Shown here piece by piece: positions 8,777 to 60,815 of a stretch of 64,000 bases of DNA. This DNA comes from Gloeocapsopsis sp. IPPAS B-1203 (GTDB taxonomy: Bacteria > Cyanobacteriota > Cyanobacteriia > Cyanobacteriales > Chroococcidiopsidaceae): NCBI RefSeq assembly GCF_002749975.1, contig NZ_PEIG01000006.1:310001-374000 (forward strand). Direction: 5' to 3'. Each line of letters opens with the position of its first letter. The stretch's first letter is position 1. The translations under genes were made by a program, and so were the position numbers. The notes under the pieces are model-generated. The model did no database searches. It was given only the letters and a program-made list of their open reading frames with translations, and was not told where the DNA came from.

Positions 8777-10069
8777 ATGGTAGATTTTTATACTGTACTA
8801 CGCTGGTTAGCTGTGTTGTTCTTAGTGATTGCTAGTGTAGTGATATTTATTATGTACTTTCGGGGAACGTTTCGCGATCGCATCGAGTACAAAATCAAAA
8901 ATGTCCCTGCACCAGGCGATCCGCGTTTTCCGTTAGCACTTGCTAGTCTCTCAAATTCGGTAACAACTAGCGGACGGTTAACAGGTTTCTGGATAGAAGC
9001 TGAAGCGATCAATGCGGCTAGAATCGCTGCAATTCACAGCGCTGAGCATACAATCCATTTTGAAACTTTTTTCATGACTCCAGGGCGTCGTGTCAATGAC
9101 TTAGCCGACGCACTGATCGAACGAGCACAAGCTGGTGTTGAAGTTGAAATTGTTGTCGATCAATATGGTGCAAAAGAATTATCGCGGCGCTATTGGCAAA
9201 GATTACGTTCTGCAGGAATTAATATTCATTTCTATAATGATTTCAACTGGAAAGCTCCTGTTGATTACTTTGCTCGTACTCACCGTAAATTGTTACTCAT
9301 TGATGGCAAGGTATGTTTAATTGGTGGTGCAGGAATTTCTGATTACTGGGATGGATTAGACAATATCAAAGATACTGGTCCTTGGTACGATTTTGAAATG
9401 CGTTGGGAAGGTGAAGTTGTTGCTGTACTTGAAGGAGTATTTATGCAGCATTGGACTTATGTGCGTGGTACTGCGGACTTAGATCCGCGTGTTTTTCATC
9501 CTTCACCCAACAATGATGCAATTGTTTTAGTTACAGCAGGCGACGATCCTTCCTATCGCGCCTCTAGTGTCAGAGCATTATTTCAAGTTAGTATCTCTTC
9601 AGCAAAACGGCGGATTTGGATTGCTAGTCCTTATTTTTTACCCGACAAAAACTTGCAACGAGAGCTTATTATTGCAAAAAATAATGGAATTGATGTGTGT
9701 GTTCTCACTAACGGCAGTCAGTGTGATAAAAAATTTGTTTATTATGCCTCGTGTGAACTGTATGGCGATTTGCTCAAAGCTGGCGTACAAATTTATGAAT
9801 ATCAGCCTAGTATGATGCACGCCAAAGCCTTGCTGCTAGATAACTACTGGGTAAGTAGTGGTAGTGCTAATTTTGATCCGCGCAGTTTCTTCCATAATGA
9901 CGAGCTTGATATATCCTCTGCAGATGAGCAGCTAGTGCCCAATATTGAGCAGATGTTTCTTAAAGGATTTGCTAAAAGTAAAAAGCTCGATCAAACTCAG
10001 TGGCGTAAGCGTTCTATTTGGCAACGAGTTCTAGGTAGAGTTGTCTTGTTCTTTCAGTCTCAACTCTAG
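8777..10069 (+). CDS. Phospholipase D-like protein, probable cardiolipin synthase
   Basis: 430 residues with an N-terminal membrane segment (about 7-28, rich in L, V and I) followed by two HKD domains. The first HxKxxxxD motif is H169, K171, D176 (THRKLLLIDGKV) with the downstream GG; the second is H348, K350, D355 (MMHAKALLLDN) followed by GSANFDPRS. This two-motif layout is that of bacterial cardiolipin synthases, which condense two phosphatidylglycerol molecules at the inner membrane. Other PLD-type phosphatidyltransferases cannot be excluded. It is preceded by an intergenic stretch with the HCP terminator and stands as a single gene. Confidence 0.88.
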   Translation: MVDFYTVLRWLAVLFLVIASVVIFIMYFRGTFRDRIEYKIKNVPAPGDPRFPLALASLSNSVTTSGRLTGFWIEAEAINAARIAAIHSAEHTIHFETFFMTPGRRVNDLADALIERAQAGVEVEIVVDQYGAKELSRRYWQRLRSAGINIHFYNDFNWKAPVDYFARTHRKLLLIDGKVCLIGGAGISDYWDGLDNIKDTGPWYDFEMRWEGEVVAVLEGVFMQHWTYVRGTADLDPRVFHPSPNNDAIVLVTAGDDPSYRASSVRALFQVSISSAKRRIWIASPYFLPDKNLQRELIIAKNNGIDVCVLTNGSQCDKKFVYYASCELYGDLLKAGVQIYEYQPSMMHAKALLLDNYWVSSGSANFDPRSFFHNDELDISSADEQLVPNIEQMFLKGFAKSKKLDQTQWRKRSIWQRVLGRVVLFFQSQL

Positions 10070-48581: not shown

Positions 48582-48755
48582 ATGAATCTGCAAGATGACA
48601 TTAGCGATGTGCAAGAGCCAATTCTCACCGCGCCAGCAGAAGTCAGGCAAATTATTGAACAGGTGTGGAAGTTAGAAAAGAGCAGACTTGATAAAAAAAG
48701 TAACAGCCATATCAACGATGATATTTTGCGGATTGTCAAGGAAGCGGTGCGATGA
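48582..48755 (+). CDS. Small 57-residue protein heading the Dnd-associated ATPase operon
   Basis: An ORF of 57 codons (MNLQDDISDVQEPILTAPAE at the start, DDILRIVKEAVR at the end) whose stop codon overlaps the ATPase start in ATGA. The protein is charged and probably all-helical, without membrane segment or known motif. The four-base overlap with an intact downstream gene argues that it is real and translated in a fixed ratio with it. It may be a small subunit or regulator of the ATPase. No family recognised. Confidence 0.65.
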   Translation: MNLQDDISDVQEPILTAPAEVRQIIEQVWKLEKSRLDKKSNSHINDDILRIVKEAVR

Positions 48756-50821
48756 AGTTAACTTCAATTCGGCTGTGTAACTTTCGTTCGTTTTATAGCA
48801 AAACACCGGAAATTGTCCTTGCAGGTGGAACAAATCGCAATACGACAATCGTTCACGGTAACAATGGTGCAGGGAAAACGAGTTTCTTAAATGCATTTAC
48901 GTGGGTACTATACGAGAAGTTTAGTGCGGCGTTTGCTTCTGCTGAACAACTTGTCAATAAACGGGCGATCGCCGAAGCAAATATCGGAGAAGTCATCGAA
49001 TGCTGGGTAGAAATATTTTGGGAACATGATAACAAACGCTACCGCGTTAAACGCGAGTGTCGCGTGTATAAAAACGACACCAACTTTGATGCGGGTAAAA
49101 CCCAGTTATTTATGCAAATAGCTGGCGATGATGGGCGGTGGTATCATTCACCACAACATCCAGAAGACGTGATCAATCAGATTCTACCGTCAAGCTTACA
49201 TCAGTATTTCTTTTTCGATGGCGAACGAATCGAACAAATTGTGCGATCGGATAAGAAAGCAGAAATTGCTGAAGCAACCAAAATCTTTTTAGGCGTGAAA
49301 GTCATTGATAACTCAATCAAGCATTTAAGTGAAGCCAAAAAAACGCTAGAAAATGAATTAAAAGTGATTGGTGATGCCCAAACCAAACAACTTTTGAGAG
49401 AACGGCAAAAGATAGAAATTGAGATTGAACAAATTACACAGCGCCAAAGTGAGATTACTCAAGAGTTAGAATATCAAAACACTTTTAAAAAAGAAACAAG
49501 TCACCGTCTACGCGAACTTGCTGCGGCGCAAGAACTACAGGAAAGACGGCAAAATTTAGAAAACCAGAAAACAACAAATCAAGAAGAACTACGAAAAAGT
49601 AAAGAAACTCTCAAGAAAACTATTTCTACACGCGGTTACAGTGTACTACTACCGTCAACGACAAATCAATTTCGAGAAATTATTGCAGCATTAAAGCAGC
49701 GCGGCGAGTTAACCGCCAGAATTTCGCAAGAATTTGTGCAAGAAATACTGCGCGATCGCCGTTGTATTTGTGGTACACAACTAGACGATGGAAGTGATGT
49801 GCATCAAAACGTCAGCAACTTGTTAAATCAAGCTGGTTCTTCTGCTGTCCAAGAAACTGTTATTCGGACAATCGCCCAAGTTGACGAAATTGACAAACAA
49901 GCAACTGCTTTTTGGGAAGATGTCGATCGCGAACAATTACGTATTAATCAATTAAGAGAAAGTATATCACAAATCGAAGCTGAGTTAGATAATATTCAAG
50001 AACGTTTGCGTAAAGATCCCAGCGAAGAAATTCGCAATTTGCAACTTCGATTGGATGATATTGATAGAAAAATAGCTGAATTAAACATTGAACGCGGTGA
50101 AAAGAATCAGCGTGTTGATAGTTTAAAAACTGAAGCTGCTGAATTAGATAAGCAAATTGCCAAACAAAAATTTAATGAGGAAAGACAAGCATTAGCACAA
50201 AGACGGATTGCTGCAACTTTAGATGCAATTGAACGATTAAACGAAGTTAAACAACGCCAAGAGAAGCAGTTTCGTTTGCAATTAGAAAAACGAATTCAAG
50301 AAATATTTAATGAAATTTCTATCACGCCCTATATTCCTAAAATTAGTAAAAAATACGAACTCACATTAATAGAAAATACTTCTGGTGTAGAAGCACCCGT
50401 TGCGGCTTCTACAGGTGAAAATCAAATACTGAGCTTATCATTTATTGGTAGCATCATCGACAAAGTGCGCGAGTGGAGTGAAAGAAAAATGTTGATGGTA
50501 GCTGATGGTAGCACATTTCCCATAGTGATGGACTCGCCGTTTGGAAGTTTAGATGAAACTTATCGGCGACAAATTGCCAAGATTATTCCCCAATTAGCTA
50601 ATCAGTTGATTGTATTAGTGAGTAATACCCAGTGGCGCGGAGAAGTAGAAGCAGAAATGACTTCAAGAATCGGTAGGGAATATGTTCTAACTTACTATTC
50701 TTCTAAACCAGATTGCGAAGAGGATGCGATTGAAATTGTAGGACAAGAGTATCCTTTAGTTAGACAAAGTCCTAATGAGTTTGAGTATACTGAAATTCTT
50801 GAGGTAAATCGCAACGGTTGA
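48752..50821 (+). CDS. SMC/Rad50-like AAA ATPase, paralogous to DndD
   Basis: 689 residues. The N-terminal half-ATPase has Walker A GNNGAGKTS (36-44) and a YFFFDGERI motif (FDGERI at 155-160), the same position as FDGEQV in the island's DndD. Long coiled coils follow (about 185-295 and 375-510) around a central C-x-C (RRCICGTQL, C338 and C340) that could be half of a zinc hook. The second half has the signature STGENQILSLSF (553-564) and Walker B/D-loop MDSPFGSLDETYR (593-605). It is therefore a DndD-type SMC ATPase acting on DNA. The gene is coupled to the 57-aa ORF and followed after 42 bases by Dnd-associated protein 4. Role inferred: partner or restriction ATPase of the phosphorothioation system. 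Confidence 0.88.
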   Translation: MKLTSIRLCNFRSFYSKTPEIVLAGGTNRNTTIVHGNNGAGKTSFLNAFTWVLYEKFSAAFASAEQLVNKRAIAEANIGEVIECWVEIFWEHDNKRYRVKRECRVYKNDTNFDAGKTQLFMQIAGDDGRWYHSPQHPEDVINQILPSSLHQYFFFDGERIEQIVRSDKKAEIAEATKIFLGVKVIDNSIKHLSEAKKTLENELKVIGDAQTKQLLRERQKIEIEIEQITQRQSEITQELEYQNTFKKETSHRLRELAAAQELQERRQNLENQKTTNQEELRKSKETLKKTISTRGYSVLLPSTTNQFREIIAALKQRGELTARISQEFVQEILRDRRCICGTQLDDGSDVHQNVSNLLNQAGSSAVQETVIRTIAQVDEIDKQATAFWEDVDREQLRINQLRESISQIEAELDNIQERLRKDPSEEIRNLQLRLDDIDRKIAELNIERGEKNQRVDSLKTEAAELDKQIAKQKFNEERQALAQRRIAATLDAIERLNEVKQRQEKQFRLQLEKRIQEIFNEISITPYIPKISKKYELTLIENTSGVEAPVAASTGENQILSLSFIGSIIDKVREWSERKMLMVADGSTFPIVMDSPFGSLDETYRRQIAKIIPQLANQLIVLVSNTQWRGEVEAEMTSRIGREYVLTYYSSKPDCEEDAIEIVGQEYPLVRQSPNEFEYTEILEVNRNG

Positions 50822-50863
50822 AGGTAAACACAGTGCTACAAATTATTAAAAAGCTTTAAGAAA

Positions 50864-51334
50864 ATGGTAGAAACTGGCAGAATTAGAGTAGCAAAAGACA
50901 AAGCTGACTTAGTTAAATCTTTAATTTCAACTGACGGTGCAACAGGTCCTTTTCAAACCTTTGCAGATGCGATCGCCTTTGCTGCTGCTTTGGGTGCAAA
51001 GCACAATAGACGAGTACCTTTAGGAGAAATTTCAAAAAGAGAACCTTCTCCTATTAGATTAGAGTACTTTGCATCAATGGGACATGACTGCGTAATTAAG
51101 TTATTAGCAATTACGGAAACAAAAGACATTAAAATTCTATCGCTTACTGAGGAATCCGAAGCTAAACGTAACCTTATCTTTGAAGAATATGCCAATGGCG
51201 GACTAGAAATACTGCAAAATGAGTTACGTGGAGCAGTAGACTATTCTGAGCGAATTTTATTAATGCTTTGTCCTGAACGCGAACAGCAAGAACAGCAAAA
51301 TGAAGAGTTTGATTTAAGTAAATTTCTATCTTGA
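50864..51334 (+). CDS. Dnd system-associated protein 4
   Basis: 156 residues. The sequence follows the Dnd system-associated protein 4 pattern: RIRVAKDKADLVKSLI near the start, TFADAIAFAAALGAKHNRRV, and LIFEEYANGGLEILQNELRG. It has no membrane segment and ends in a Gln/Glu-rich tail (EREQQEQQNEEFDLSKF). The family is known only from its linkage to dnd genes. It is the third gene of the 57-aa ORF/ATPase unit and convergent with dndB. Function unknown. Confidence 0.8.
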   Translation: MVETGRIRVAKDKADLVKSLISTDGATGPFQTFADAIAFAAALGAKHNRRVPLGEISKREPSPIRLEYFASMGHDCVIKLLAITETKDIKILSLTEESEAKRNLIFEEYANGGLEILQNELRGAVDYSERILLMLCPEREQQEQQNEEFDLSKFLS

Positions 51335-51520: not shown

Positions 51521-53089
51521 TTACAACATAGGTGGTAATCCTATTGCTTTTGGTTCCACAAGCTGACCATCAAAGCCGATCGCCTGTTTTTCAATAGTTC
51601 TTGCATCTGCTACAGCCTTACGGAGTTCGGCGCGTTCCATTGGTTCTTGGATTCCGCCGAGAATGTAAATGAGTAGCTTTGCTGCTAAATCGCGCCCTGC
51701 AACTTGTACGCGCTTTTTGTTTGGGTCGTATAAGATACCGTACCAAAGCGATCGCGGATATTCCATGCTACTAAAACCACCTTCTAAGTCAAACTTGTGG
51801 AGTTTCTTAAAGATGTCTTTGAGTGAGAAACCTTTTTTGAAGACTAAAATTCCTAAAGCTTGCGCTAAAGCAACTTGTCCAACAGGGCGAAAAAGCATAT
51901 TTCCTTCACCGCCATCCTTCTCGAAACTAAAGCGTCGGAGTAACGGTGTTTCTTCCGCTTCGAGTACCCGATAACTTGGTAGAGTCGCTAAATAATCAAA
52001 TAACTGCTGAAATTCTACGATTCCCGCCTCTAGTTCTCGATCGTTTGGGCGTATCGGAATCAAACCTTTATCTAATGGTTTCCAGTGTAAGAACTTTTGT
52101 CCGAGATATCGCTCTGACATCTCTTTAAGTGCTTGCAGTGTTGTTAAAACCGTAGATTTAGTAGCAACTGTAGCGCTATTCCAATTAACGCGCGGCTTTC
52201 GCGTGCTTCTTTGTTCTAGAAGTGGATGCGTCGTCGCAATTTTTCTCGCCACGATCGCAAATCCATCATCCTCATTCAACTGCGCTAATTGACCTTTCGT
52301 CAAAGGTACAGCCATTAAGTTGACATGAACAAAAATTGATCTTACCCGTCGTCGTGCTTGTTCGCGAGTTTCACCTTTCTCGACTGCACAGATAAACTCA
52401 ATTCCTATTTTTTCTTGAGGTAAACTTTCTAAATAATCAACATTTACGTGATAATGCTCGATCAAGTCATTTAAAGTAATGACACTACCATCAGGAGTCT
52501 TGTCTTTGCGATAACGCTGAAGTTGATGCGTCTCAAGTAATTCCATCAACCCTTGTACTCCCATCAAGCGGTGTTGACCATCAAGTGCATAAATTGTAGC
52601 TTCAGGTGCAATATTGAGTAACCCAATACCTTCACGGTCTAAAGGCGTAAAATCGATAGTAGACTTTGTAGCGCATCCTTCACTATCCCATTCTGTTGCT
52701 TTAGGATTATCTACCCACGGTTGATGAATGACAACAAGCACTGGTGGAAACTTATGATTTTTCCATGCTGCTAAGTATTGTACCAGAGGTATTTGCCGCG
52801 ACCAATCAAGCGGGCGTTGTTGAATTTCTGCGATTGTATCCGCATCGACTTCTACATTATCTGTTGCAGGATTATGCTTAGGCTGAAGCAGCGGTAAACA
52901 TGATGCAAAGCGCACTTGTTGCGCAAACCACTCCAAGGTAACAGAGCCTAAGTAAGCTTGAGTACCACCCATCGTTGTTGTTTGCACGAGAATTCGAGCT
53001 TCTAAATATGGTGCTAACAACGAAGCCAATTCCTCTGGTTTGTTGTCCTTGCGATATTTACCAGTAGTATCAGCTACTCTCTTATTCAT
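51521..53089 (-). CDS. dndB: DNA phosphorothioation regulator/modulator DndB (DGQHR domain)
   Basis: 522 residues with the family-defining DGQHR motif at 170-174 (IYALDGQHRLMGVQGL). It also contains EFICAVEKGETREQARRRVR and KGQLAQLNEDDGFAIVARK, conserved in DndB. In studied systems DndB is not essential for modification but tunes it and can act as a repressor. Here it is divergent from dndC across 179 bases with several palindromes, which fits a regulatory role. Downstream 186 bases separate it from the convergent Dnd-associated protein 4 gene. Confidence 0.93.
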   Translation of the reverse strand: MNKRVADTTGKYRKDNKPEELASLLAPYLEARILVQTTTMGGTQAYLGSVTLEWFAQQVRFASCLPLLQPKHNPATDNVEVDADTIAEIQQRPLDWSRQIPLVQYLAAWKNHKFPPVLVVIHQPWVDNPKATEWDSEGCATKSTIDFTPLDREGIGLLNIAPEATIYALDGQHRLMGVQGLMELLETHQLQRYRKDKTPDGSVITLNDLIEHYHVNVDYLESLPQEKIGIEFICAVEKGETREQARRRVRSIFVHVNLMAVPLTKGQLAQLNEDDGFAIVARKIATTHPLLEQRSTRKPRVNWNSATVATKSTVLTTLQALKEMSERYLGQKFLHWKPLDKGLIPIRPNDRELEAGIVEFQQLFDYLATLPSYRVLEAEETPLLRRFSFEKDGGEGNMLFRPVGQVALAQALGILVFKKGFSLKDIFKKLHKFDLEGGFSSMEYPRSLWYGILYDPNKKRVQVAGRDLAAKLLIYILGGIQEPMERAELRKAVADARTIEKQAIGFDGQLVEPKAIGLPPML

Positions 53090-53268: not shown

Positions 53269-54843
53269 ATGTCTACAGCACAACAGCAACACAACCAAGG
53301 CGAGCAGGCACGTACTGTAGCAGATTTAGTTGCAGATATTCAAGCTCTTACCACTGAAATTCAAGAACTATACTGTTTAGACGAAATACCTTGGTGTGTA
53401 GGCTACAGTGGCGGAAAAGATAGCACCGCAACTTTGCAACTTGTGTGGAATGCGATCGCATCGCTCCCACCCGAAAAGCGTACTAAAACAATCCACGTCA
53501 TCACGACGGATACATTAGTAGAAAATCCGATTGTTTCTGCTTGGGTGCGTAACTCGCTCCAACAGATGAAGCTTGAGGCTGAAGCGCAAAAATTACCATT
53601 TCAACCGCATCTCTTACAGCCAGAGGCTAAGGAAACATTTTGGGTAGGTTTAATCGGTAAAGGTTATCCAGCACCTAGAGGAAAATTTCGCTGGTGTACC
53701 GAGCGTCTTAAGATTAATCCATCAAACCGTTTTATTCGTGATGTGATCAGAACAAACGGTGAAACCATTCTTGTTTTAGGTACTCGCAAAGCTGAAAGCA
53801 CAAAGCGTGCAAACAGAATGAAGAAGATGGAAGCTAAGCGGGTCAGAGATCGCCTCAGCCCAAACATGAATTTACCAAACTCGTTAGTTTATAGCCCCAT
53901 CGAAGACTGGCGCAACGATGAAGTATGGCTTTATCTGATGCAGTGGGAGAATCCTTGGCGATATAGCAACAAAGATTTATTCTCAATGTATCGCGGTGCT
54001 ACGGCTGATAATGAATGTCCCTTAGTGGTTGATACATCGACTCCTAGTTGTGGAAGTTCTCGTTTTGGTTGCTGGGTTTGCACACTGGTTAGCCAAGATA
54101 AATCACTAACAGCCATGATCCAGAATGATGATGAGAAAGAATGGATGCAACCACTACTTGATTTCCGTATGGAATTAGATGCAGAAGAAAATCGTGAAAG
54201 ACGCGATTTTAGGCGGAGGAATGGTAACGTACAACTTTACGAACGCAACCTAGATGGCGATATCTCTGTTGAACCAATTCCAGGTCCTTATGTTAAAGAA
54301 GCAAGAGAATATTGGCTTAGAAGACTCCTGACAATTCAAACACAAATTCAACGTACCGCGCCAGCAGAAATGCGCGAGCTTACCCTAATCACTCTAGAAG
54401 AGTTAAGCGAAATCCGCCGTATCTGGTTAGAAGAAAATCACGAGTTTGACGACAGTTTACCGCGAATTTATCAAGAAGTTACAGGCGAACCTTTTCGCGA
54501 TCCACGCCCAGGAAGCGATCGCACTTTGCTCGGTAGCGACGAATGGGCTGTACTCGAAGAAATCTGTGATGATGACGCAATGCATCTCGAATTAATGGCA
54601 AAGTTACTCGATACCGAACGACAATATCGCACCATGGCGCGTCGTAATGGCATTTTTGAGGCGTTAGAAAAGTGCTTTGAAACAAGTTCGCGTTCCAAAG
54701 AAGAAGCGATCGCTAATGCACATTACAAAAGAGACTTGAAAAATGCTGCTGAGCAAGGCAACGTTGAAACTGTCAAGCAGTTAACATGGGCAAGCCTAAA
54801 GTTTCAAGCTACATCCATAGATGACAATAGCTTAAGTGATTAG
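53269..54843 (+). CDS. dndC: DNA phosphorothioation protein DndC (PAPS-reductase-like, Fe-S)
   Basis: 524 residues. The ATP-pyrophosphatase loop is YSGGKDS (47-52 for SGGKDS). Cysteines C250, C261, C268 and C271 (CPLVV, SCGSSRFGCWVC) are placed to hold the 4Fe-4S cluster known for DndC; C143 is in RWCTERLK. The enzyme activates the DNA backbone with ATP for sulfur insertion together with DndD and DndE, taking sulfur from a cysteine desulfurase. No dndA is nearby, so a housekeeping IscS/SufS must supply sulfur. A good ribosome site (AGAAGAGAAGGA) precedes the ATG. dndD does not follow directly: two minus-strand envelope genes lie between. Confidence 0.95.
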   Translation: MSTAQQQHNQGEQARTVADLVADIQALTTEIQELYCLDEIPWCVGYSGGKDSTATLQLVWNAIASLPPEKRTKTIHVITTDTLVENPIVSAWVRNSLQQMKLEAEAQKLPFQPHLLQPEAKETFWVGLIGKGYPAPRGKFRWCTERLKINPSNRFIRDVIRTNGETILVLGTRKAESTKRANRMKKMEAKRVRDRLSPNMNLPNSLVYSPIEDWRNDEVWLYLMQWENPWRYSNKDLFSMYRGATADNECPLVVDTSTPSCGSSRFGCWVCTLVSQDKSLTAMIQNDDEKEWMQPLLDFRMELDAEENRERRDFRRRNGNVQLYERNLDGDISVEPIPGPYVKEAREYWLRRLLTIQTQIQRTAPAEMRELTLITLEELSEIRRIWLEENHEFDDSLPRIYQEVTGEPFRDPRPGSDRTLLGSDEWAVLEEICDDDAMHLELMAKLLDTERQYRTMARRNGIFEALEKCFETSSRSKEEAIANAHYKRDLKNAAEQGNVETVKQLTWASLKFQATSIDDNSLSD

Positions 54844-54927
54844 AATCACTGCCCATTTTAATGAGTTTGATACAGTTCAGATAGGGCTGAACTGTATTCG
54901 ACTGCTAAAAAAGTTGTTAGCTGCTAT

Positions 54928-55410
54928 TTACCAAAGAGCGCGAACACCCTCACCCGCAGGTTGCTCCACTCCAGTAGTGTCGTCGTTATCGTTGTCCGTG
55001 TCTGTAGGTGCTCCGACTCCTGGTGTAGTAGTATCTTCTGGTGTGGTAGTTGCATCCGGTGTCGTTGTCGCAGGAGCTGTGGGATCGGTTGGCGTACCTA
55101 ATCCTGGGGTAGTTGCATCTGGTGTTGTTCCAGGAGCTGTGGGATCGGTTGGTTGTCCTAATCCTGGGGTAGTTGCATCTGGTGTTGTTCCAGGAGCTGT
55201 AGGATCAGTTGGTTGTCCTACTCCTGGCGCAGTCGGATCAGTTGGTTGTCCTACTCCTGGGGTAGTTTGAGCAAGGATTTGATTAGAGCTACCAAGTTTG
55301 GCGTTGGAATTAATTTGCGTTAAAGCTGGAAGAGTCACAAGAGTCGCAGCACCAGCAAATCCCAATAGACTTGTCAGCTTGAGAAGCATTTGGCGTTTCC
55401 GTGCTTGCAT
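54928..55410 (-). CDS. Secreted Pro/Thr-rich repeat protein
   Basis: 160 residues from the ATG at 55410, chosen for GGAGAAATTA upstream; the frame extends to 55431. A signal peptide is likely (LLKLTSLLGFAGAATLVTLP). The mature protein is almost entirely a 20-residue repeat of the type PGLGQPTDPTAPGTTPDATT in two to three full and several shortened copies, then an Asp/Asn-rich end (DTDNDNDDT). It is probably an extended, disordered cell-surface or periplasmic protein. It sits between dndC and dndD but on the other strand and has no evident link to them. Confidence 0.75.
   Translation of the reverse strand: MQARKRQMLLKLTSLLGFAGAATLVTLPALTQINSNAKLGSSNQILAQTTPGVGQPTDPTAPGVGQPTDPTAPGTTPDATTPGLGQPTDPTAPGTTPDATTPGLGTPTDPTAPATTTPDATTTPEDTTTPGVGAPTDTDNDNDDTTGVEQPAGEGVRALW
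55061..55265. repeat. 60-bp tandem repeat within the Pro/Thr-rich gene
   Basis: The blocks 55081-55140 and 55141-55200 are nearly identical (differences confined to a few bases around 55093). Partial copies flank them. The high DNA identity points to recent expansion by slippage or unequal exchange. Confidence 0.85.
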
Positions 55411-55701: not shown

Positions 55702-56253
55702 TTATTCCACAACTGTGACAGGAGTTCCTAGACTGACTTGACTAAACAACTCTTCGACGTCTTTGTTGTACATCCGAATACAGCCATGCGAAGCTGCTGT
55801 ACCTACTGTTTCAGCATTAGGAGTACCATGAAAACCAATTGAATTTCTGCCATCACTCCAGAAGCCAATCCAATACGAACCTAGTGGATTTTCGGGGTGT
55901 CCTCCTGGAACTGTCTCATCTGTCAACGGACTAATCCAAGTAGGATTTTTTAACATTTGACCTACGCGAAAATTACCAGTCGGAGTTTCCCAACCAGGAC
56001 GCCCTACTGCGATCGGATAACTTTTTATCACTGTCTCTCCCTGATACAGAGTGACTTTGCGACTGTTTAGCTGAATCTTTAATCTCAAAGGCTCAGCGAC
56101 TTTGTTAGGTGTATTGTTAGCAGGAGCTTGAGGCATAACCGATTGTGTCACAACCGGTGGCGATTCTGATAAATTTTGCTGATGAGCAAACTGGTGAGCG
56201 ATTACATTGGCAGCTACTACTACGCCAGCTAGGGCAAACAATTGCTTGATCAT
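55702..56253 (-). CDS. L,D-transpeptidase (YkuD domain)
   Basis: 183 residues. After a signal-anchor (FALAGVVVAANVIAH) and a linker comes a YkuD domain: LNSRKVTLYQGETVIKSYPI, IGFHGTPNAET (H142) and the catalytic motif ASHGCIRMYN with H156 and Cys158. Such enzymes cross-link peptidoglycan 3-3 or attach proteins to it, outside the inner membrane. It lies on the minus strand between dndC and dndD, together with the repeat protein gene 291 bases downstream. Confidence 0.93.
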   Translation of the reverse strand: MIKQLFALAGVVVAANVIAHQFAHQQNLSESPPVVTQSVMPQAPANNTPNKVAEPLRLKIQLNSRKVTLYQGETVIKSYPIAVGRPGWETPTGNFRVGQMLKNPTWISPLTDETVPGGHPENPLGSYWIGFWSDGRNSIGFHGTPNAETVGTAASHGCIRMYNKDVEELFSQVSLGTPVTVVE

Positions 56254-56621: not shown

Positions 56622-58595
56622 GTGATATTTCTTGAACTCGTACTACAAAATTTTGGTCCTTATCTAGGGCGACAAGTGATTAATTTACGCCCTCAAGCAA
56701 ACGAAGATTGCCCGATTATTTTATTGGGTGGCATGAATGGTGGAGGAAAAACCACACTTATGGATGCGATTCGTCTTGCTTTGTATGGTCATCGTGCTCA
56801 ATGTTCTACGCGTGGTAACTTAAGTTATTCTGACTTTTTAACACAATCGGTAAACCGATATACTTCTATGGGCGAACCAACTTCGATTGAGTTAGCGTTT
56901 GAGAATATTTTAGATAATGTACAAGTCGAGTTTCGGATTAAACGAAGTTGGACTAAAAACCCTCGTAATGGTAAAGATACTTTAGGTATTTTAGTTGATG
57001 ATTGGCCTGATAATGCTCTGGCTCAAATTTGGGATGAACGGATCGAAGATTTACTACCTTTAGGAATTTCAAACCTATTTTTGTTTGATGGCGAACAAGT
57101 TCGAGAATTAGCAGAACAAGAGGCTCCTACCCCAATTGTAGTTGAAGCAATTCGTTCGTTACTTGGTTTAGAATTAGCTGAACGTTTAGCAACAGACATA
57201 GAAATTTTAGTTAATCGTCGGCGTAAAATTATTGCAGATAGTCAAGCACTCGTAACTCTAGAAGATATTGAGCAAAAACTGAGTCATCAGCAAAAAGAAT
57301 ATCAAAGTGCAAAAGCATATTTAGCAACAATTCAAGATCAATTAACTTACGCTCAAAAACACCAGCAAGAAACTTCAGATAAGTTCGTTTTAGAAGGTGG
57401 TAAGATTGCGGCTGAACGCAGTCAACTAGAAATTCAGCTACGTTACGAGCAGGAAGCAGTTACACAAAAGCGTGATGTGCTTACGGAATTAGCTAGTGGT
57501 ACTTTACCTCTAAATTTGATTTCACCTTTATTGATTCAAGCTCATAATCAAGCACAACAAGAAGATCAACAACAACAAGCGCAGATTACTATAAATATCT
57601 TATCTGAGCAAGAACAAAAGTTTTTGAAATATGTTGCTGCTTTAAAATTAGAGCAGGAGCAAATAGAAAAAATTAAATTGTTTTTTTACCAAGAAAATGA
57701 GGATTTAAAACAAAATATTTGCTTAGAAGAATTATGGTTACTAGCGGAGCAAGAAAGTGTTTATCAACTCCAGGAAATACTCAATAATTTACCAATTTTA
57801 CAAACTTTAGCAGAAAAGCAACTGAATGAATTAAAAAAACAAGAAGATAATTTAACAGCAATAGAAAGACGAATAGCTGTAGCACCAGCACCAGAAGTTT
57901 ACGAACAACTAGGAGATGCAGTTAAATTAGCTCAAATTGAACTTGCTAATGCGAAAGCCGCTTATGAGACAGCAAGAAAGCGTTGTGATGAGTTGGCAAT
58001 AGATATAGAAAAGACGAAAAAAGAGTTAGCGCAATATAGCGAAGAAAATATTGATAGAAAAAATGACGAACATATAATTACTGCATCAACTAAAGTACAG
58101 GCAACACTAAAACTATTTCGAGAAAAACTTACATTACGTAAACTAAATCAATTAGAATCGGTAATTACAGAATGTTTTTTATACTTGCTGCATAAGTCAG
58201 ATTTAGTTCATCGCGTTGCAATCGATTTGGATACTTTTAGTCTTTCACTTTATGATTTTCAAGGGCAATTAGTACCAAAACATCGCCTTTCCGCAGGAGA
58301 AAAGCAATTACTTGCGATCGCCTTATTATGGGGACTCGCACGAGTTTCAAGGCGTAACCTCCCTATTGCTATTGATACACCACTAGGGCGGCTTGATTCT
58401 TCGCACCGCAATAACTTAGTCGAACGCTACTTTCCTTCAGCTAGTCACCAAGTTATGCTATTTTCCACAGACACTGAAATTGGTAAAAATGAAGTTGAAC
58501 AACTCCGCAGTAACAATGCGATCGCCCGCGAATATCTTCTAAAGTACGATCCAGTAAAACGCTGTACCACAATCGAGCCAGGTTATTTTTGGTAA
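56622..58595 (+). CDS. dndD: DNA phosphorothioation ATPase DndD
   Basis: 657 residues from GTG 56622. SMC-type halves: Walker A GGMNGGGKTT (36-45), the Dnd-specific LFLFDGEQVRELAEQ (FDGEQ 155-159) with IRSLLGLELAERLA, long coiled coils in the middle (about 185-520), signature LSAGEKQLLAIALLWGLARV and Walker B AIDTPLGRLDSSHR. DndD's ATPase is thought to act on DNA structure during sulfur insertion by the DndCDE complex. No zinc-hook Cys pair is seen in the coil, unlike the second ATPase of the island. dndE follows after 243 bases rich in repeats. Confidence 0.95.
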   Translation: MIFLELVLQNFGPYLGRQVINLRPQANEDCPIILLGGMNGGGKTTLMDAIRLALYGHRAQCSTRGNLSYSDFLTQSVNRYTSMGEPTSIELAFENILDNVQVEFRIKRSWTKNPRNGKDTLGILVDDWPDNALAQIWDERIEDLLPLGISNLFLFDGEQVRELAEQEAPTPIVVEAIRSLLGLELAERLATDIEILVNRRRKIIADSQALVTLEDIEQKLSHQQKEYQSAKAYLATIQDQLTYAQKHQQETSDKFVLEGGKIAAERSQLEIQLRYEQEAVTQKRDVLTELASGTLPLNLISPLLIQAHNQAQQEDQQQQAQITINILSEQEQKFLKYVAALKLEQEQIEKIKLFFYQENEDLKQNICLEELWLLAEQESVYQLQEILNNLPILQTLAEKQLNELKKQEDNLTAIERRIAVAPAPEVYEQLGDAVKLAQIELANAKAAYETARKRCDELAIDIEKTKKELAQYSEENIDRKNDEHIITASTKVQATLKLFREKLTLRKLNQLESVITECFLYLLHKSDLVHRVAIDLDTFSLSLYDFQGQLVPKHRLSAGEKQLLAIALLWGLARVSRRNLPIAIDTPLGRLDSSHRNNLVERYFPSASHQVMLFSTDTEIGKNEVEQLRSNNAIAREYLLKYDPVKRCTTIEPGYFW

Positions 58596-58838
58596 CTAGT
58601 GATGAGTGACTAGTGGTGAGTAGCTAGTGAGAGTGTGGGAGAGTAGGAGTGTGGAAGTGTGGGAGTAGAGGTAATAGAGTTTTGAGTTTTGTTAGCGTAG
58701 CGGTGCGTTAGCACGTTTTGAATTATGAGTTATGAGAAGACTTTGATGGCATTCTTAACTCAACACTCAACATTCTTAATGAGTAACTCTCTTAGTCTCC
58801 CTACTACCCGCCTACCCAACTACCCAATCACTCCTCGT
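58596..58838 (+). repeat. Repeat-filled gap between dndD and dndE
   Basis: It contains GTGTGGGAGAGTAGGAGTG words (58629-58672), the motif GTTAGCGTAGCGGTGCGTTA at about 58691 (a common cyanobacterial palindromic repeat), TTATGAGTTATGAG words and CTACTACCCGCCTACCC (58801-58817), the last shared in reverse with 22190-22230. An open frame upstream of dndE through this stretch is an artefact of the repeats. Confidence 0.7.
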
Positions 58839-59225
58839 ATGGAACCACCACTTGAGCGCATTCATCTATCACAAACTGCAAAAGAGCAGTTAATCAAACT
58901 CAAACGAACTACTAAGATAGACCAATGGAATATCTTGTGTCGCTGGGCATTTTGTCGATCGCTTGCGGAACCTACAAATCCCTCCCCTGTTCCAATTCCT
59001 GCTGATAGTAACGTAGAAATGACGTGGCGCGTGTTTGGTGGAGAACTATCAGATGTGCTGGCGATCGCATTAAAACAGCGCTGCTATAACGATGGTTTGG
59101 GTACTGACAAAGAAACGCTAGCAACACAGTTTCGCCTCCACTTACATCGCGGGATTGCTTATCTTGCTGGCGATCCGAATATTAAGAAGATTGAGGATTT
59201 AATTAAATTAGCGATCAAAAATTAA
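58839..59225 (+). CDS. dndE: DNA phosphorothioation protein DndE
   Basis: 128 residues starting at the ATG at 58839 (MEPPLERIHLSQTAKEQLIK), the normal N-terminus of DndE; the frame extends upstream through repeats only. The pattern TKIDQWNILCRWAFCRSLAE and FRLHLHRGIAYLAGDPNI is typical of the family. DndE is a small, helical, basic protein that binds nicked DNA and works with DndC and DndD. No good ribosome binding site is visible before the ATG. Confidence 0.92.
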   Translation: MEPPLERIHLSQTAKEQLIKLKRTTKIDQWNILCRWAFCRSLAEPTNPSPVPIPADSNVEMTWRVFGGELSDVLAIALKQRCYNDGLGTDKETLATQFRLHLHRGIAYLAGDPNIKKIEDLIKLAIKN

Positions 59226-59312: not shown

Positions 59313-60815
59313 ATGACAGAAGCTCTAGAAATTGAACGTCATAGAGCCGCGATCGCGCGTACTGATTTATCACGTCCGGTGCGATTAGCCATAGAATGGG
59401 CAATCATAAACAACGATACCACGATCTTTGACTACGGTTGCGGCTATGGTGGTGATGTCGAACGCTTAGCGGCGCGGAATTACACCTGTGCAGGCTGGGA
59501 CCCTTACTACCGTCCTAATACGCCGCATACTTCGGCAGATATTGTTAATTTGGGCTATGTTCTCAACGTCATTGAAGATCCCGAAGAACGCCGCGCAGCG
59601 CTGTGTCAAGCTTGGAACTTGACACAAAAAGTTTTAATTGTCGCTGCCCAAGTTTTGATTCATGACCGCAGCAATGCCAAAATAGCTTATGGCGATGGGA
59701 TTGTAACTCGACGCAATACGTTTCAGAAATATTACGAGCAAGAAGAATTAAAATTATACATTGATGAAGTCTTGCAAGTTGATGCTGTCCCTGTCGCATT
59801 AGGAATTTACTTCGTCTTTCGCGATGAAACTGAAAAAGAAAGCTTTCGGGCTTTGCGTTTTCGTTCGCGGAGTTTAACACCGCGCGTCCGTACTCCAAGT
59901 AAACGCTTTGAAGATTATCAAGAACTCCTAACGCCACTGATTGATTTTGTTACCGAACGGGGTAGATTACCTGTTAAGGGTGAACTAGCGGAAACTTCGC
60001 GTCTTGGCGGTTCCCGTCACGATGCGAAAGTTTCCAAGACAGGTGCGCAAACCGAAATTCTACTCGAATTTGGGACTTTTCGCCGTGCCTATAATGTGAT
60101 TTTGCAAGCGACTGATGAAGCTGAGTGGGATGCGATCGCCTATCGTCGTTCGTTGGATATTTTGGTGTATCTTGCCTTAACGCAGTTTGGTAAACGTCCT
60201 AGCTTCAATCAACTCGCCTCAGAACTCCGTCAAGATATCAAAGCCTTTTTCGGTACGTATCAAGAAGCTTGCCAAGTTGCCGATAAAATGCTGTTTAGCT
60301 TAGGAAAACCTGGTGTTGTTGCCCAAACCTGCAAACAAAGTAAAATTGGCAAACACTTACCAACAGCGCTGTACGTCCATGTTTCGGCGTTACCCGAACT
60401 CGATCCTTTACTGCGTATTTATGAAGGTTGCGCTAGCCGCACGATTGGACGTATGGATAACGCAACATTAGTTAAATTTTACACTGATAAACCTAAAATA
60501 TCGTATCTTTTTTATCCAAATTTTGACACTGAGGCTCATCCTGCATTACATACAAGTATGCAAATTGACTTACAGAACCTTGGTGTGGTTTATCGCGAAT
60601 ATGACAATGTGGCGAACCCGCCAATTCTGCATCGCAAAGAAACTTTTGTGACACCAAGTTATCCGCTGTACGAACGGTTTGCTAAATTGACACGGCGCGA
60701 AGAGAAATTAGGGTTACTCAAGAATACGCGCACCATTGGAACGCGCGACGGTTGGCAAAAATGGTTAGAGGAAAACGGTGTGGAGATTAAAGGCGATCGC
60801 ATCGTTTCTAAATGA
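59313..60815 (+). CDS. DNA phosphorothioation-associated putative methyltransferase
   Basis: 500 residues. The N-terminal domain is a class I SAM-dependent methyltransferase with FDYGCGYGGDVERLAARN (motif I at about 39-47) and the family-specific continuation WDPYYRPNTPHTSADIVNLG. The remainder is a large, basic domain without known motifs (TPSKRFEDYQELLTPLIDF; LVYLALTQFGKRP-like segments) and ends VEIKGDRIVSK. Family members occur next to dnd genes; their target is unknown. No catalytic DPPY/NPPY motif is evident, so it is not a typical adenine or cytosine-N4 DNA methylase. Confidence 0.9.
   Translation: MTEALEIERHRAAIARTDLSRPVRLAIEWAIINNDTTIFDYGCGYGGDVERLAARNYTCAGWDPYYRPNTPHTSADIVNLGYVLNVIEDPEERRAALCQAWNLTQKVLIVAAQVLIHDRSNAKIAYGDGIVTRRNTFQKYYEQEELKLYIDEVLQVDAVPVALGIYFVFRDETEKESFRALRFRSRSLTPRVRTPSKRFEDYQELLTPLIDFVTERGRLPVKGELAETSRLGGSRHDAKVSKTGAQTEILLEFGTFRRAYNVILQATDEAEWDAIAYRRSLDILVYLALTQFGKRPSFNQLASELRQDIKAFFGTYQEACQVADKMLFSLGKPGVVAQTCKQSKIGKHLPTALYVHVSALPELDPLLRIYEGCASRTIGRMDNATLVKFYTDKPKISYLFYPNFDTEAHPALHTSMQIDLQNLGVVYREYDNVANPPILHRKETFVTPSYPLYERFAKLTRREEKLGLLKNTRTIGTRDGWQKWLEENGVEIKGDRIVSK

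What the first reader, a model, noticed from the sequence alone, without database searches (positions are those of the whole stretch)
48582..51334. Second DndD-like SMC ATPase in a three-gene unit: candidate unknown partner arm of a phosphorothioation system
The island has dndB, dndC, dndD, dndE and the associated methyltransferase, but the window shows none of the known restriction genes (dndF/G/H, dptFGH). Instead a coupled unit (57-aa ORF, 689-aa SMC ATPase, Dnd-associated protein 4) lies next to dndB. The ATPase shares with DndD the Walker A region and an FDGE motif at the same position (155), but also has a central C-x-C in its coil that DndD here lacks. Duplication of the DndD core with a new hook suggests a DNA-sensing or cleavage complex that reads or uses the modification. 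Motifs and layout are seen; the role is inferred.
Basis: partly seen in the sequence, partly recalled or inferred. Interest (0 to 1): 0.75.

Follow-up and report, generated by a model that had tools for sequence, protein, structure and literature searches.

The report
Scattered DNA-sulfur restriction system in cyanobacteria
The three genes are the known PbeB, PbeC and PbeD parts of a defence system that depends on sulfur-marked DNA; the fourth part, PbeA, sits elsewhere in the same genome, and in many related cyanobacteria the parts are kept together although they lie scattered over the chromosome.

Summary
The finding is real, but the unit is not unknown. 48582-51334 encodes PbeB (57 aa), PbeC (689 aa, CxC-type ABC ATPase) and PbeD (156 aa, TIGR04062; predicted fold nearest to DndE). 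These are three of the four parts of the published PbeABCD / "CxC-DndE" phosphorothioation-dependent defence system. PbeA lies on another contig, behind lexA (C15:38863-40434, TIGR04095 665.8 bits), and lacks the HKD nuclease domain. DndF was over cut-off in 0 of 386 cyanobacterial genomes (positive control).

What my searches did not find in print is the genome-wide picture. In 386 cyanobacterial genomes PbeA, PbeC, PbeD and DndC were found in 91, 92, 94 and 94; all four in 87, some in 12, none in 287. In 23 of the 87 all four lie apart, 13 of these on one contig. PbeC goes the way of PbeD in 6 of 6 independent pairs on an rpoB tree; loss of DndC is not significantly tied to loss of PbeA or PbeC. 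This speaks against papers that take cyanobacterial phosphorothioation for modification without restriction. The mechanism is inferred from the archaeal system and was not tested here.

The parts
48582..48755 (+). pbeB, 57-aa small protein; predicted three helices (8-16, 19-38, 45-56; mean pLDDT 77.9)
   Evidence: same gene order as in an annotated Pontibrevibacter locus. No family model matched it
48752..50821 (+). pbeC, 689-aa CxC-type coiled-coil ABC ATPase, paralogue of DndD
   Evidence: PADLOC PbeC PDLC02753 1145.2 bits; CxC 338-340; NCBIfam DndD TIGR03185 169.5 bits, below its cut-off 245.85
50864..51334 (+). pbeD, 156 aa, TIGR04062 dnd_assoc_4; DndE-like predicted fold
   Evidence: no PADLOC model matched
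51521..53089 (-). DGQHR / DndB-superfamily protein, 522 aa
   Evidence: relatives in 34 of 61 neighbourhoods
53269..54843 (+). dndC, sulfurtransferase
   Evidence: TIGR03183 722.8 bits, cut-off 290.4
56622..58595 (+). dndD, ABC ATPase of the modification core
   Evidence: TIGR03185 663.2 bits, cut-off 245.85
58725..59225 (+). dndE; the median length of 30 relatives is 131 aa, so the true start may lie inside this 166-aa ORF
   Evidence: TIGR03184 133 bits, cut-off 71.85; lengths
59313..60815 (+). DNA phosphorothioation-associated putative methyltransferase
   Evidence: TIGR04096 703.1 bits, cut-off 150

Best explanation
The unit is pbeBCD, the recognition part of a PbeABCD phosphorothioation-dependent restriction system that works with the neighbouring dnd modification genes and with a helicase-only PbeA encoded behind lexA on another contig. 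Shown here: the family membership of PbeA, PbeC and PbeD, the conservation of PbeB, intact ATPase and helicase motifs, a DndE-like predicted fold of PbeD, the absence of an HKD domain in this PbeA, and the joint presence of PbeA, PbeC, PbeD and DndC across genomes whether linked or not. Inferred: a PbeC dimer with DndE-like PbeD scans DNA as DndD-DndE is thought to do, reads the sulfur marks that the Dnd proteins leave on host sites, and on unmarked incoming DNA recruits the PbeA translocase with the help of PbeB, so that replication is blocked rather than the DNA cut.
For: PADLOC PbeC 1145.2 bits; TIGR04062 199.4 bits. PbeA: TIGR04095 'DNA phosphorothioation system restriction enzyme' 665.8 bits, cut-off 600, and PADLOC PbeA 546.2 bits, aligned only to profile positions 227-681 of 682. 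An annotated plasmid locus with a 'DNA phosphorothioation system restriction enzyme', a small protein, an AAA ATPase and 'protein 4' near dndD and dndE. Of 386 genomes all four genes in 87, some in 12, none in 287. DndF over cut-off in 0 of 386; the same search finds it in 2 of 2 plasmids annotated with dptF. PbeD model: the 9 best PDB matches are all DndE structures. Archaeal PbeABCD depends on phosphorothioation, needs PbeB, PbeC and PbeD absolutely and PbeA partly, and leaves viral DNA uncut (PMC6459918, passages).
Against: No function was measured. The PADLOC name PbeC is not clean: the window's DndD also scores best to a PADLOC 'PbeC' model (921.9 bits against 758.7 for the best DndD model), so the name rests on the CxC motif, the NCBIfam result and the context. 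Foldseek E-values for PbeD are weak (best 0.11, none at 0.001 or better) and a profile comparison of PbeD with DndE found nothing. G051 keeps an intact-looking PbeA without the other three. G070, G159 and G170 have PbeC and PbeD without DndC over cut-off. On the rpoB tree loss of PbeA or PbeC is not significantly tied to loss of DndC. Six genomes of the order hold a further, longer PbeA-like protein besides the short one (open frames of 668-698 aa); the one examined, in G197, matches PADLOC PbeA over its full length. Rakesh et al. argue that the system does cleave DNA, because most PbeA carry an HKD nuclease.
Confidence: 0.75

Rival explanations
1. A nuclease-based restriction system: PbeABCD directs cleavage, with the nuclease supplied in trans, for example by the HNH protein encoded between PbeD and the DGQHR gene in relatives.
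For: A family of about 313-aa HNH proteins lies in 18 of 61 neighbourhoods; the one scanned is NF045808 PT-DNA_restrict at 122.7 bits, below its cut-off of 180. Uma2-type putative endonuclease genes also recur in the cluster. Rakesh et al. favour cleavage.
Against: The HNH family is in only 18 of 61 neighbourhoods and was not found in the window's own genome. The short PbeA has no HKD domain.
Confidence: 0.2
2. The dispersed set is a housekeeping DNA-surveillance or oxidative-stress function of phosphorothioated chromosomes rather than defence.
For: All four genes in 86 of 105 genomes of one order, and not in one cluster in 59 of the 87 genomes that have all four. PbeA lies behind lexA in the window's genome and in 13 of the 61 neighbourhoods. 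Jian et al. propose an antioxidant origin.
Against: The archaeal relative restricts a virus. The Pbe genes are missing from several lineages that do without them.
Confidence: 0.2
3. The second ATPase is a spare DndD and TIGR04062 an unrelated neighbour.
For: Shared Walker A and FDGE positions with DndD.
Against: PbeC and PbeD co-occur in 92 of 386 genomes, PbeD without PbeC in 2, PbeC without PbeD in 0. The CxC is invariant in 13 relatives. The NCBIfam DndD score is below cut-off.
Confidence: 0.03

Closest known systems
PbeABCD (Xiong et al. 2019, H. jeotgali A29; PMC6459918)
   Same: Small PbeB, SMC-like ATPase PbeC, about 150-aa PbeD, helicase PbeA, coupled to dnd phosphorothioation.
   Different: Here PbeA is unlinked from pbeBCD and has no HKD domain.
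CxC ABC ATPase-DndE anchored systems (Rakesh et al. 2024, PMC10853773)
   Same: CxC hook in the coil, DndE-like partner, small protein, SF2 helicase.
   Different: [quoted passage not shown] Here the HKD domain is absent, PbeB is conserved and predicted helical, and the genes lie apart in many genomes.
TIGR04062 and TIGR04095 (ProPhylo paper 2011, PMC3226654)
   Same: The very families of this PbeD and PbeA, built as strictly phosphorothioation-dependent.
   Different: In the passages read that paper does not join them with a PbeC or PbeB; n = 25 and 26.
DndFGH
   Same: A restriction arm that goes with dnd modification.
   Different: DndF over cut-off in 0 of 386 genomes; DndH not found in the own genome, without a positive control.

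Membership tests
PbeABCD | PbeC-type ATPase | tested here: met
   PADLOC PDLC02753 1145.2 bits; the PADLOC PbeC set also catches DndD, so CxC and the NCBIfam result were used as well
PbeABCD | PbeD | tested here: met
   TIGR04062 199.4 bits; same place as in the Pontibrevibacter locus. That TIGR04062 is PbeD rests on gene order and fold; no PADLOC model matched
PbeABCD | PbeB small protein before PbeC | tested here: met
   57-aa ORF overlapping pbeC, conserved
PbeABCD | PbeA helicase in the genome | tested here: met
   G000:C15:38863-40434; PADLOC PbeA 546.2 bits, TIGR04095 665.8 bits
PbeABCD | PbeA in the same gene cluster | tested here: not met
   PbeA on contig C15, pbeBCD on C6. Among 87 genomes PbeA is within 15 kb of PbeC in 41 and all four genes are linked in 28
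PbeABCD | HKD nuclease domain fused to PbeA (as stated by Rakesh et al.) | tested here: not met
   PADLOC alignment starts at profile position 227 of 682; 98 residues before Walker A against 283 in G170
PbeABCD | Phosphorothioation-dependent virus restriction | not testable with these tools
   needs bench work
[quoted passage not shown]
   C338-I-C340, invariant in 13 sequences; that it is the apex is taken from Rakesh et al., PbeC was not modelled
CxC-DndE anchored system | DndE-like partner with two RHH units | tested here: inconclusive
   AlphaFold model pLDDT 87.6; the 9 best PDB matches are DndE, TM 0.38-0.51 by query length, E 0.11-0.80; profile comparison found nothing
DndFGH | DndF (TIGR03238) in the genome | tested here: not met
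   positive control
DndFGH | DndH (TIGR03237) in the genome | tested here: inconclusive
   no match, but nothing rang anywhere in that search
Ssp systems and DndI | SspE, SspFGH or DndI | not tested
   no search of the genome made

The most novel reading that the evidence does not exclude
In the window's order (probably Cyanobacteriales, inferred) the Dnd-Pbe system is not a mobile defence island but an old, mostly vertically inherited, near-core system whose parts can lie at four or more separate chromosomal places, still work, and are lost as a set. Its usual helicase has no nuclease domain, so it would guard the chromosome's sulfur marking without cutting DNA. 'Solo' phosphorothioation in cyanobacteria would then be an artefact of surveys that require adjacency or look only for DndFGH.
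Probability: 0.5. Interest if true: 0.75.

Novelty: new variant of a known kind. Interest (0 to 1): 0.55.

Why it matters
Jian et al. 2021 conclude that phosphorothioation restriction is absent from cyanobacteria and use this for an antioxidant-origin argument; a 2025 review repeats that solo modifiers are most frequent there. If PbeABCD is present in nearly every dnd-bearing cyanobacterium, that argument loses an important support, and restriction becomes directly testable in these organisms. A restriction system whose parts are unlinked yet kept together is also unusual, because linkage no longer guards against losing the protective arm first. The HKD-less PbeA offers a natural test of whether Pbe defence needs a nuclease at all, a point on which the two main papers disagree.

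Tried and rejected
PbeA was first sought among PLD-domain and ResIII proteins of the own genome. The hits on C9, C2, C12 and others were set aside from their sequence starts, lengths and neighbours (my reading; no family scan). The lexA-linked 524-aa helicase was recognised only after relatives showed its homologue upstream of pbeB. No PbeA-like ORF lies in C6:370000-389999, which overlaps and follows the window's end (my reading).

A profile comparison of PbeD with DndE gave no support; only the predicted fold did. The PbeB model was not searched for folds, and PbeC and PbeA were not modelled.

Relatives of PbeC in phages: 4 of 50,697 records, all under 60% identity, not followed. In plasmids: 24 of 72,556 records. 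Solved structures by sequence: only weak Rad50, SMC and ymcA matches for PbeC and one weak CorA match for the PbeD profile.

A comparison of pairwise distances among the four proteins in 44 genomes gives r 0.64-0.96, but relatedness of the species alone can give this, so I do not count it as evidence of interaction.

I first took a recurring protein of about 392 aa for a transposase (label 'IS392'). A late scan shows that it is a DndB-superfamily protein (Pfam DndB 284.3 bits; NCBIfam DndB 61.2 bits, cut-off 328); the report is corrected accordingly.
Full report
What is there. The window lies at G000:C6:310001-374000. Searches confirm the three ORFs at 48582-48755, 48752-50821 and 50864-51334. 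NCBIfam, PADLOC and Pfam scans give TIGR04062 (dnd_assoc_4, 199.4 bits, cut-off 74.25) for the third protein and PADLOC PbeC (1145.2 bits) for the ATPase. Its score to the NCBIfam DndD model (169.5 bits) is below the cut-off of 245.85, while the window's DndD scores 663.2. A caution: the window's DndD also scores best to a PADLOC 'PbeC' model (921.9 bits against 758.7 for the best DndD model), so the PADLOC name alone does not separate the two. One search does: FDGE at 155 in both ATPases, CxC at 338-340 only in the first. In the 13 PbeC aligned both cysteines and many ATPase residues are invariant. The two ATPases align at 22% identity.

What it is called. Xiong et al. 2019 (PMC6459918; passages and section 10 read) described archaeal PbeABCD: a helicase-like PbeA, a 66-aa PbeB, an SMC-like PbeC and a 152-aa PbeD. 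Rakesh et al. 2024 (PMC10853773; outline, sections 14, 16, 17 and passages read) state that this is the CxC ABC ATPase system with its own DndE homologue (PbeD) and an HKD-SF2 fusion as PbeA. The 2011 ProPhylo paper (PMC3226654, passages) had already built TIGR04062 and TIGR04095 as strictly phosphorothioation-dependent families.

Where PbeA is. It is not beside pbeBCD. I took regions of up to 20 kb around TIGR04062 in 60 of the 94 genomes over cut-off and the own locus, 61 in all. Clustering finds a helicase of 460-706 aa in 21 of the 61. In 17 it lies directly before pbeB, and in 13 directly behind a LexA-family gene (ORFs of 100 aa or more plus pbeB). The own genome's homologue is 524 aa, at C15:38863-40434, behind lexA (TIGR00498, 205 bits, cut-off 110.95) and an ornithine/aspartate carbamoyltransferase gene. 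It scores 665.8 bits to TIGR04095 and 546.2 to PADLOC PbeA, but only to the part behind position 226. GSGKT, DEAH, SAT and QRRGR are present (their meaning as helicase motifs is recalled).

The missing nuclease domain. Of 46 PbeA found by BLAST at E 1e-20 among the ORFs that I hold, 44 have 37-113 residues before Walker A and two have 283 and 298 (L094 = G170 and L258 = G193, both outside the window's order). The G170 protein has a PLD-like domain (PF13091) and an HxK motif. In the phylum search the 91 over-cut-off hits have open frames of 451-550 aa, except 714 and 733 aa in those two genomes. That BLAST cut left out one protein against the pattern: a 655-aa PbeA beside PbeD in G197, of the same order, which matches PADLOC PbeA over its full length. 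G197 also has a short PbeA elsewhere. Five more genomes of the order (G070, G116, G253, G312, G357) have a second PbeA-like protein of 688-698 aa below cut-off. So the short form is the rule in the order, and some genomes hold a long one besides.

PbeD and PbeB. The AlphaFold model of PbeD (mean pLDDT 87.6) has DndE structures as its 9 best matches in the PDB library of 350,542 chains, with weak E-values (0.11-0.80) and TM-scores of 0.38-0.51 by query length; no match reaches E 0.001. A profile comparison with DndE found nothing. I read PbeD as a very divergent DndE, as Rakesh et al. state. PbeB is predicted as three helices (mean pLDDT 77.9), with I24, V28, E32 and L36 invariant in 27 sequences.

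Genome-wide survey. The same 386 cyanobacterial genomes were searched for PbeD (TIGR04062), PbeA (TIGR04095), DndC (TIGR03183), PbeC (alignment A1, E up to 1e-100) and DndF (TIGR03238, E up to 1e-10). I counted hits over the curated cut-off for PbeA, DndC and PbeD, and all hits for PbeC. Of 96 genomes with a PbeD match this drops G268 and G349; it keeps G011, whose PbeD has stops, and G070, whose PbeD is in two pieces. Result: PbeA 91, PbeC 92, PbeD 94, DndC 94; all four 87; some 12; none 287. 'None' means none over these thresholds: below cut-off, G081, G094, G349 and G365, outside the order, have PbeA-like proteins of 731-757 aa, and broken PbeA remains in G054, G159 and G385. DndF was over cut-off in 0 of 386, with one match below it (G218, 41.1 bits). 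The same search rings in 2 of 2 plasmids annotated with dptF and not in the plasmid with the PbeABCD genes.

Linkage. Joining genes within 15 kb, the 87 genomes split into: all linked 28; all four apart 23; PbeA apart from a PbeC-PbeD-DndC cluster 18 (the window's type, also in its same-genus relative G005); PbeA-PbeC and PbeD-DndC 7; other 11. Draft contigs can fake separation, but 13 of the 23 have all four genes on one contig, with gaps of 122 kb or more. In 14 of the 23 I looked at DndC's surroundings: 10 have no DndD within the 12 kb fetched. Whether DndD and DndE lie elsewhere in those genomes was not searched. PbeB lies beside PbeC in 10 of these 14; in three of one genus (G002, G066, G298) a longer PbeB relative lies behind PbeA instead; in G145 none was seen.

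Is it more than shared ancestry? Within the window's order (105 genomes) 86 have all four, 9 none and 10 some, so part of the overlap is taxonomy. I made a quick rpoB tree of 64 genomes: 65 were asked for, chosen to hold all those of the order that lack parts, and G131 gave no match. 15 of its 61 inner branches are poorly supported. The fewest changes are 6 for PbeA, 7 for PbeC, 6 for PbeD and 8 for DndC. In independent pairs on well supported branches PbeC goes the way of PbeD in 6 of 6 (median p 0.03, range 0.03-0.06); PbeC goes the way of PbeA in on average 3.7 of 5, with none opposed (median p 0.125; too few pairs to reach 0.05). DndC does not follow PbeA or PbeC significantly (median p 1 and 0.625). 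A clear case is a genus in which G143 has all four, unlinked, and G147, G183 and G268 have none over cut-off (G268 with a broken PbeD remnant). DndC without the Pbe genes remains in G080, G211, G058 (partial) and G385 (broken). Against strict dependence, G051 keeps PbeA alone, and G070, G159 and G170 keep PbeC and PbeD without DndC over cut-off. G097 lacks only PbeC, which may be a gap of its draft assembly.

What the literature says about cyanobacteria. Jian et al. 2021 (PMC8569181, passages) report dnd enriched in Nostocales and vertical inheritance in Cyanobacteriales, note disordered operons, took dndFGH near dnd genes as the restriction arm, state that restriction systems are absent from cyanobacteria and argue for an antioxidant origin; 'pbe' does not occur in the text held. 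[quoted passage not shown] A Microcoleus paper (PMC8546630, passages) does notice a phosphorothioation type III restriction enzyme upstream of dndBCDE, and dnd genes spread over contigs, so parts of the picture are in print. My searches listed no paper whose title or abstract start reports PbeABCD as general or unlinked in cyanobacteria; the library is open access only, and most listed papers were not opened.

Mechanism. Shown: the parts, their motifs, the missing HKD domain and the joint presence. From Xiong et al.: archaeal PbeABCD depends on phosphorothioation, blocks virus replication, leaves the DNA uncut, and needs PbeA only in part. Inferred: PbeC-PbeD scans DNA like DndD-DndE, tells marked from unmarked sites and with PbeB recruits the PbeA translocase to stop replication. 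Whether a nuclease acts in trans is open: an HNH family lies in 18 of 61 neighbourhoods (one member scanned: PT-DNA_restrict, below cut-off) but was not found in the own genome.

Organism. The same-genus genome G005 has its locus on a contig of 72,205 bases, the length of Gloeocapsopsis crepidinum LEGE 06123 contig NZ_JADEWN010000022.1, whose PbeC is 89% identical to the window's. The window therefore most likely comes from a close relative of Gloeocapsopsis (inference).

Changes after checking against the calls: the PADLOC overlap of DndD and PbeC, the long PbeA copies in the order, the below-cut-off hits and the DndB correction were added.

Noticed in passing
window 51521-53089; L052, L059, L063, L075, L078, L100 and others: The gene read as dndB is a 522-aa DGQHR-domain protein. 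A second DndB-superfamily protein of about 392 aa (Pfam DndB 284.3 bits; NCBIfam DndB 61.2 bits, cut-off 328; one member scanned) lies in 15 of 61 neighbourhoods, the same-genus one included, but no relative of it was found in the window.
   Followed up: partly
window 54836-55270 and 55702-56253: A 144-aa protein without any family match and an L,D-transpeptidase gene on the other strand sit between dndC and dndD; relatives of both are also there in the same-genus genome.
   Followed up: no
neighbourhoods L052-L111, between pbeC, pbeD and the DGQHR gene: Uma2-type putative endonuclease genes (two clusters, in 15 and 13 of 61 loci; one member of each scanned) and an HNH gene recur inside the cluster.
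   Followed up: partly
G070, G116, G253, G312, G357 and L095 (G197): A further, longer PbeA-like protein (open frames of 668-698 aa, below the TIGR04095 cut-off) besides the short one, suggesting a second Pbe-type system.
   Followed up: partly
G081, G094, G349, G365: PbeA-like proteins of 731-757 aa in genomes outside the order, below cut-off; G349 also has a faint TIGR04062 match about 2.4 kb away on the same contig.
   Followed up: no
L232, Pseudanabaena galeata plasmid pPg_01: A plasmid-borne PbeA (1431 bases) - small protein - PbeC - PbeD set beside a type I-D CRISPR locus, without dnd genes in the stretch shown.
   Followed up: no
G051:C1:979015: An intact-looking PbeA behind OTC and LexA relatives in a genome in which PbeC, PbeD and DndC were not found.
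   Followed up: partly
window 8777-10069: A PLD-domain protein (the genome's best PF13091 match) about 38 kb from the unit; no sign of a link.
   Followed up: no
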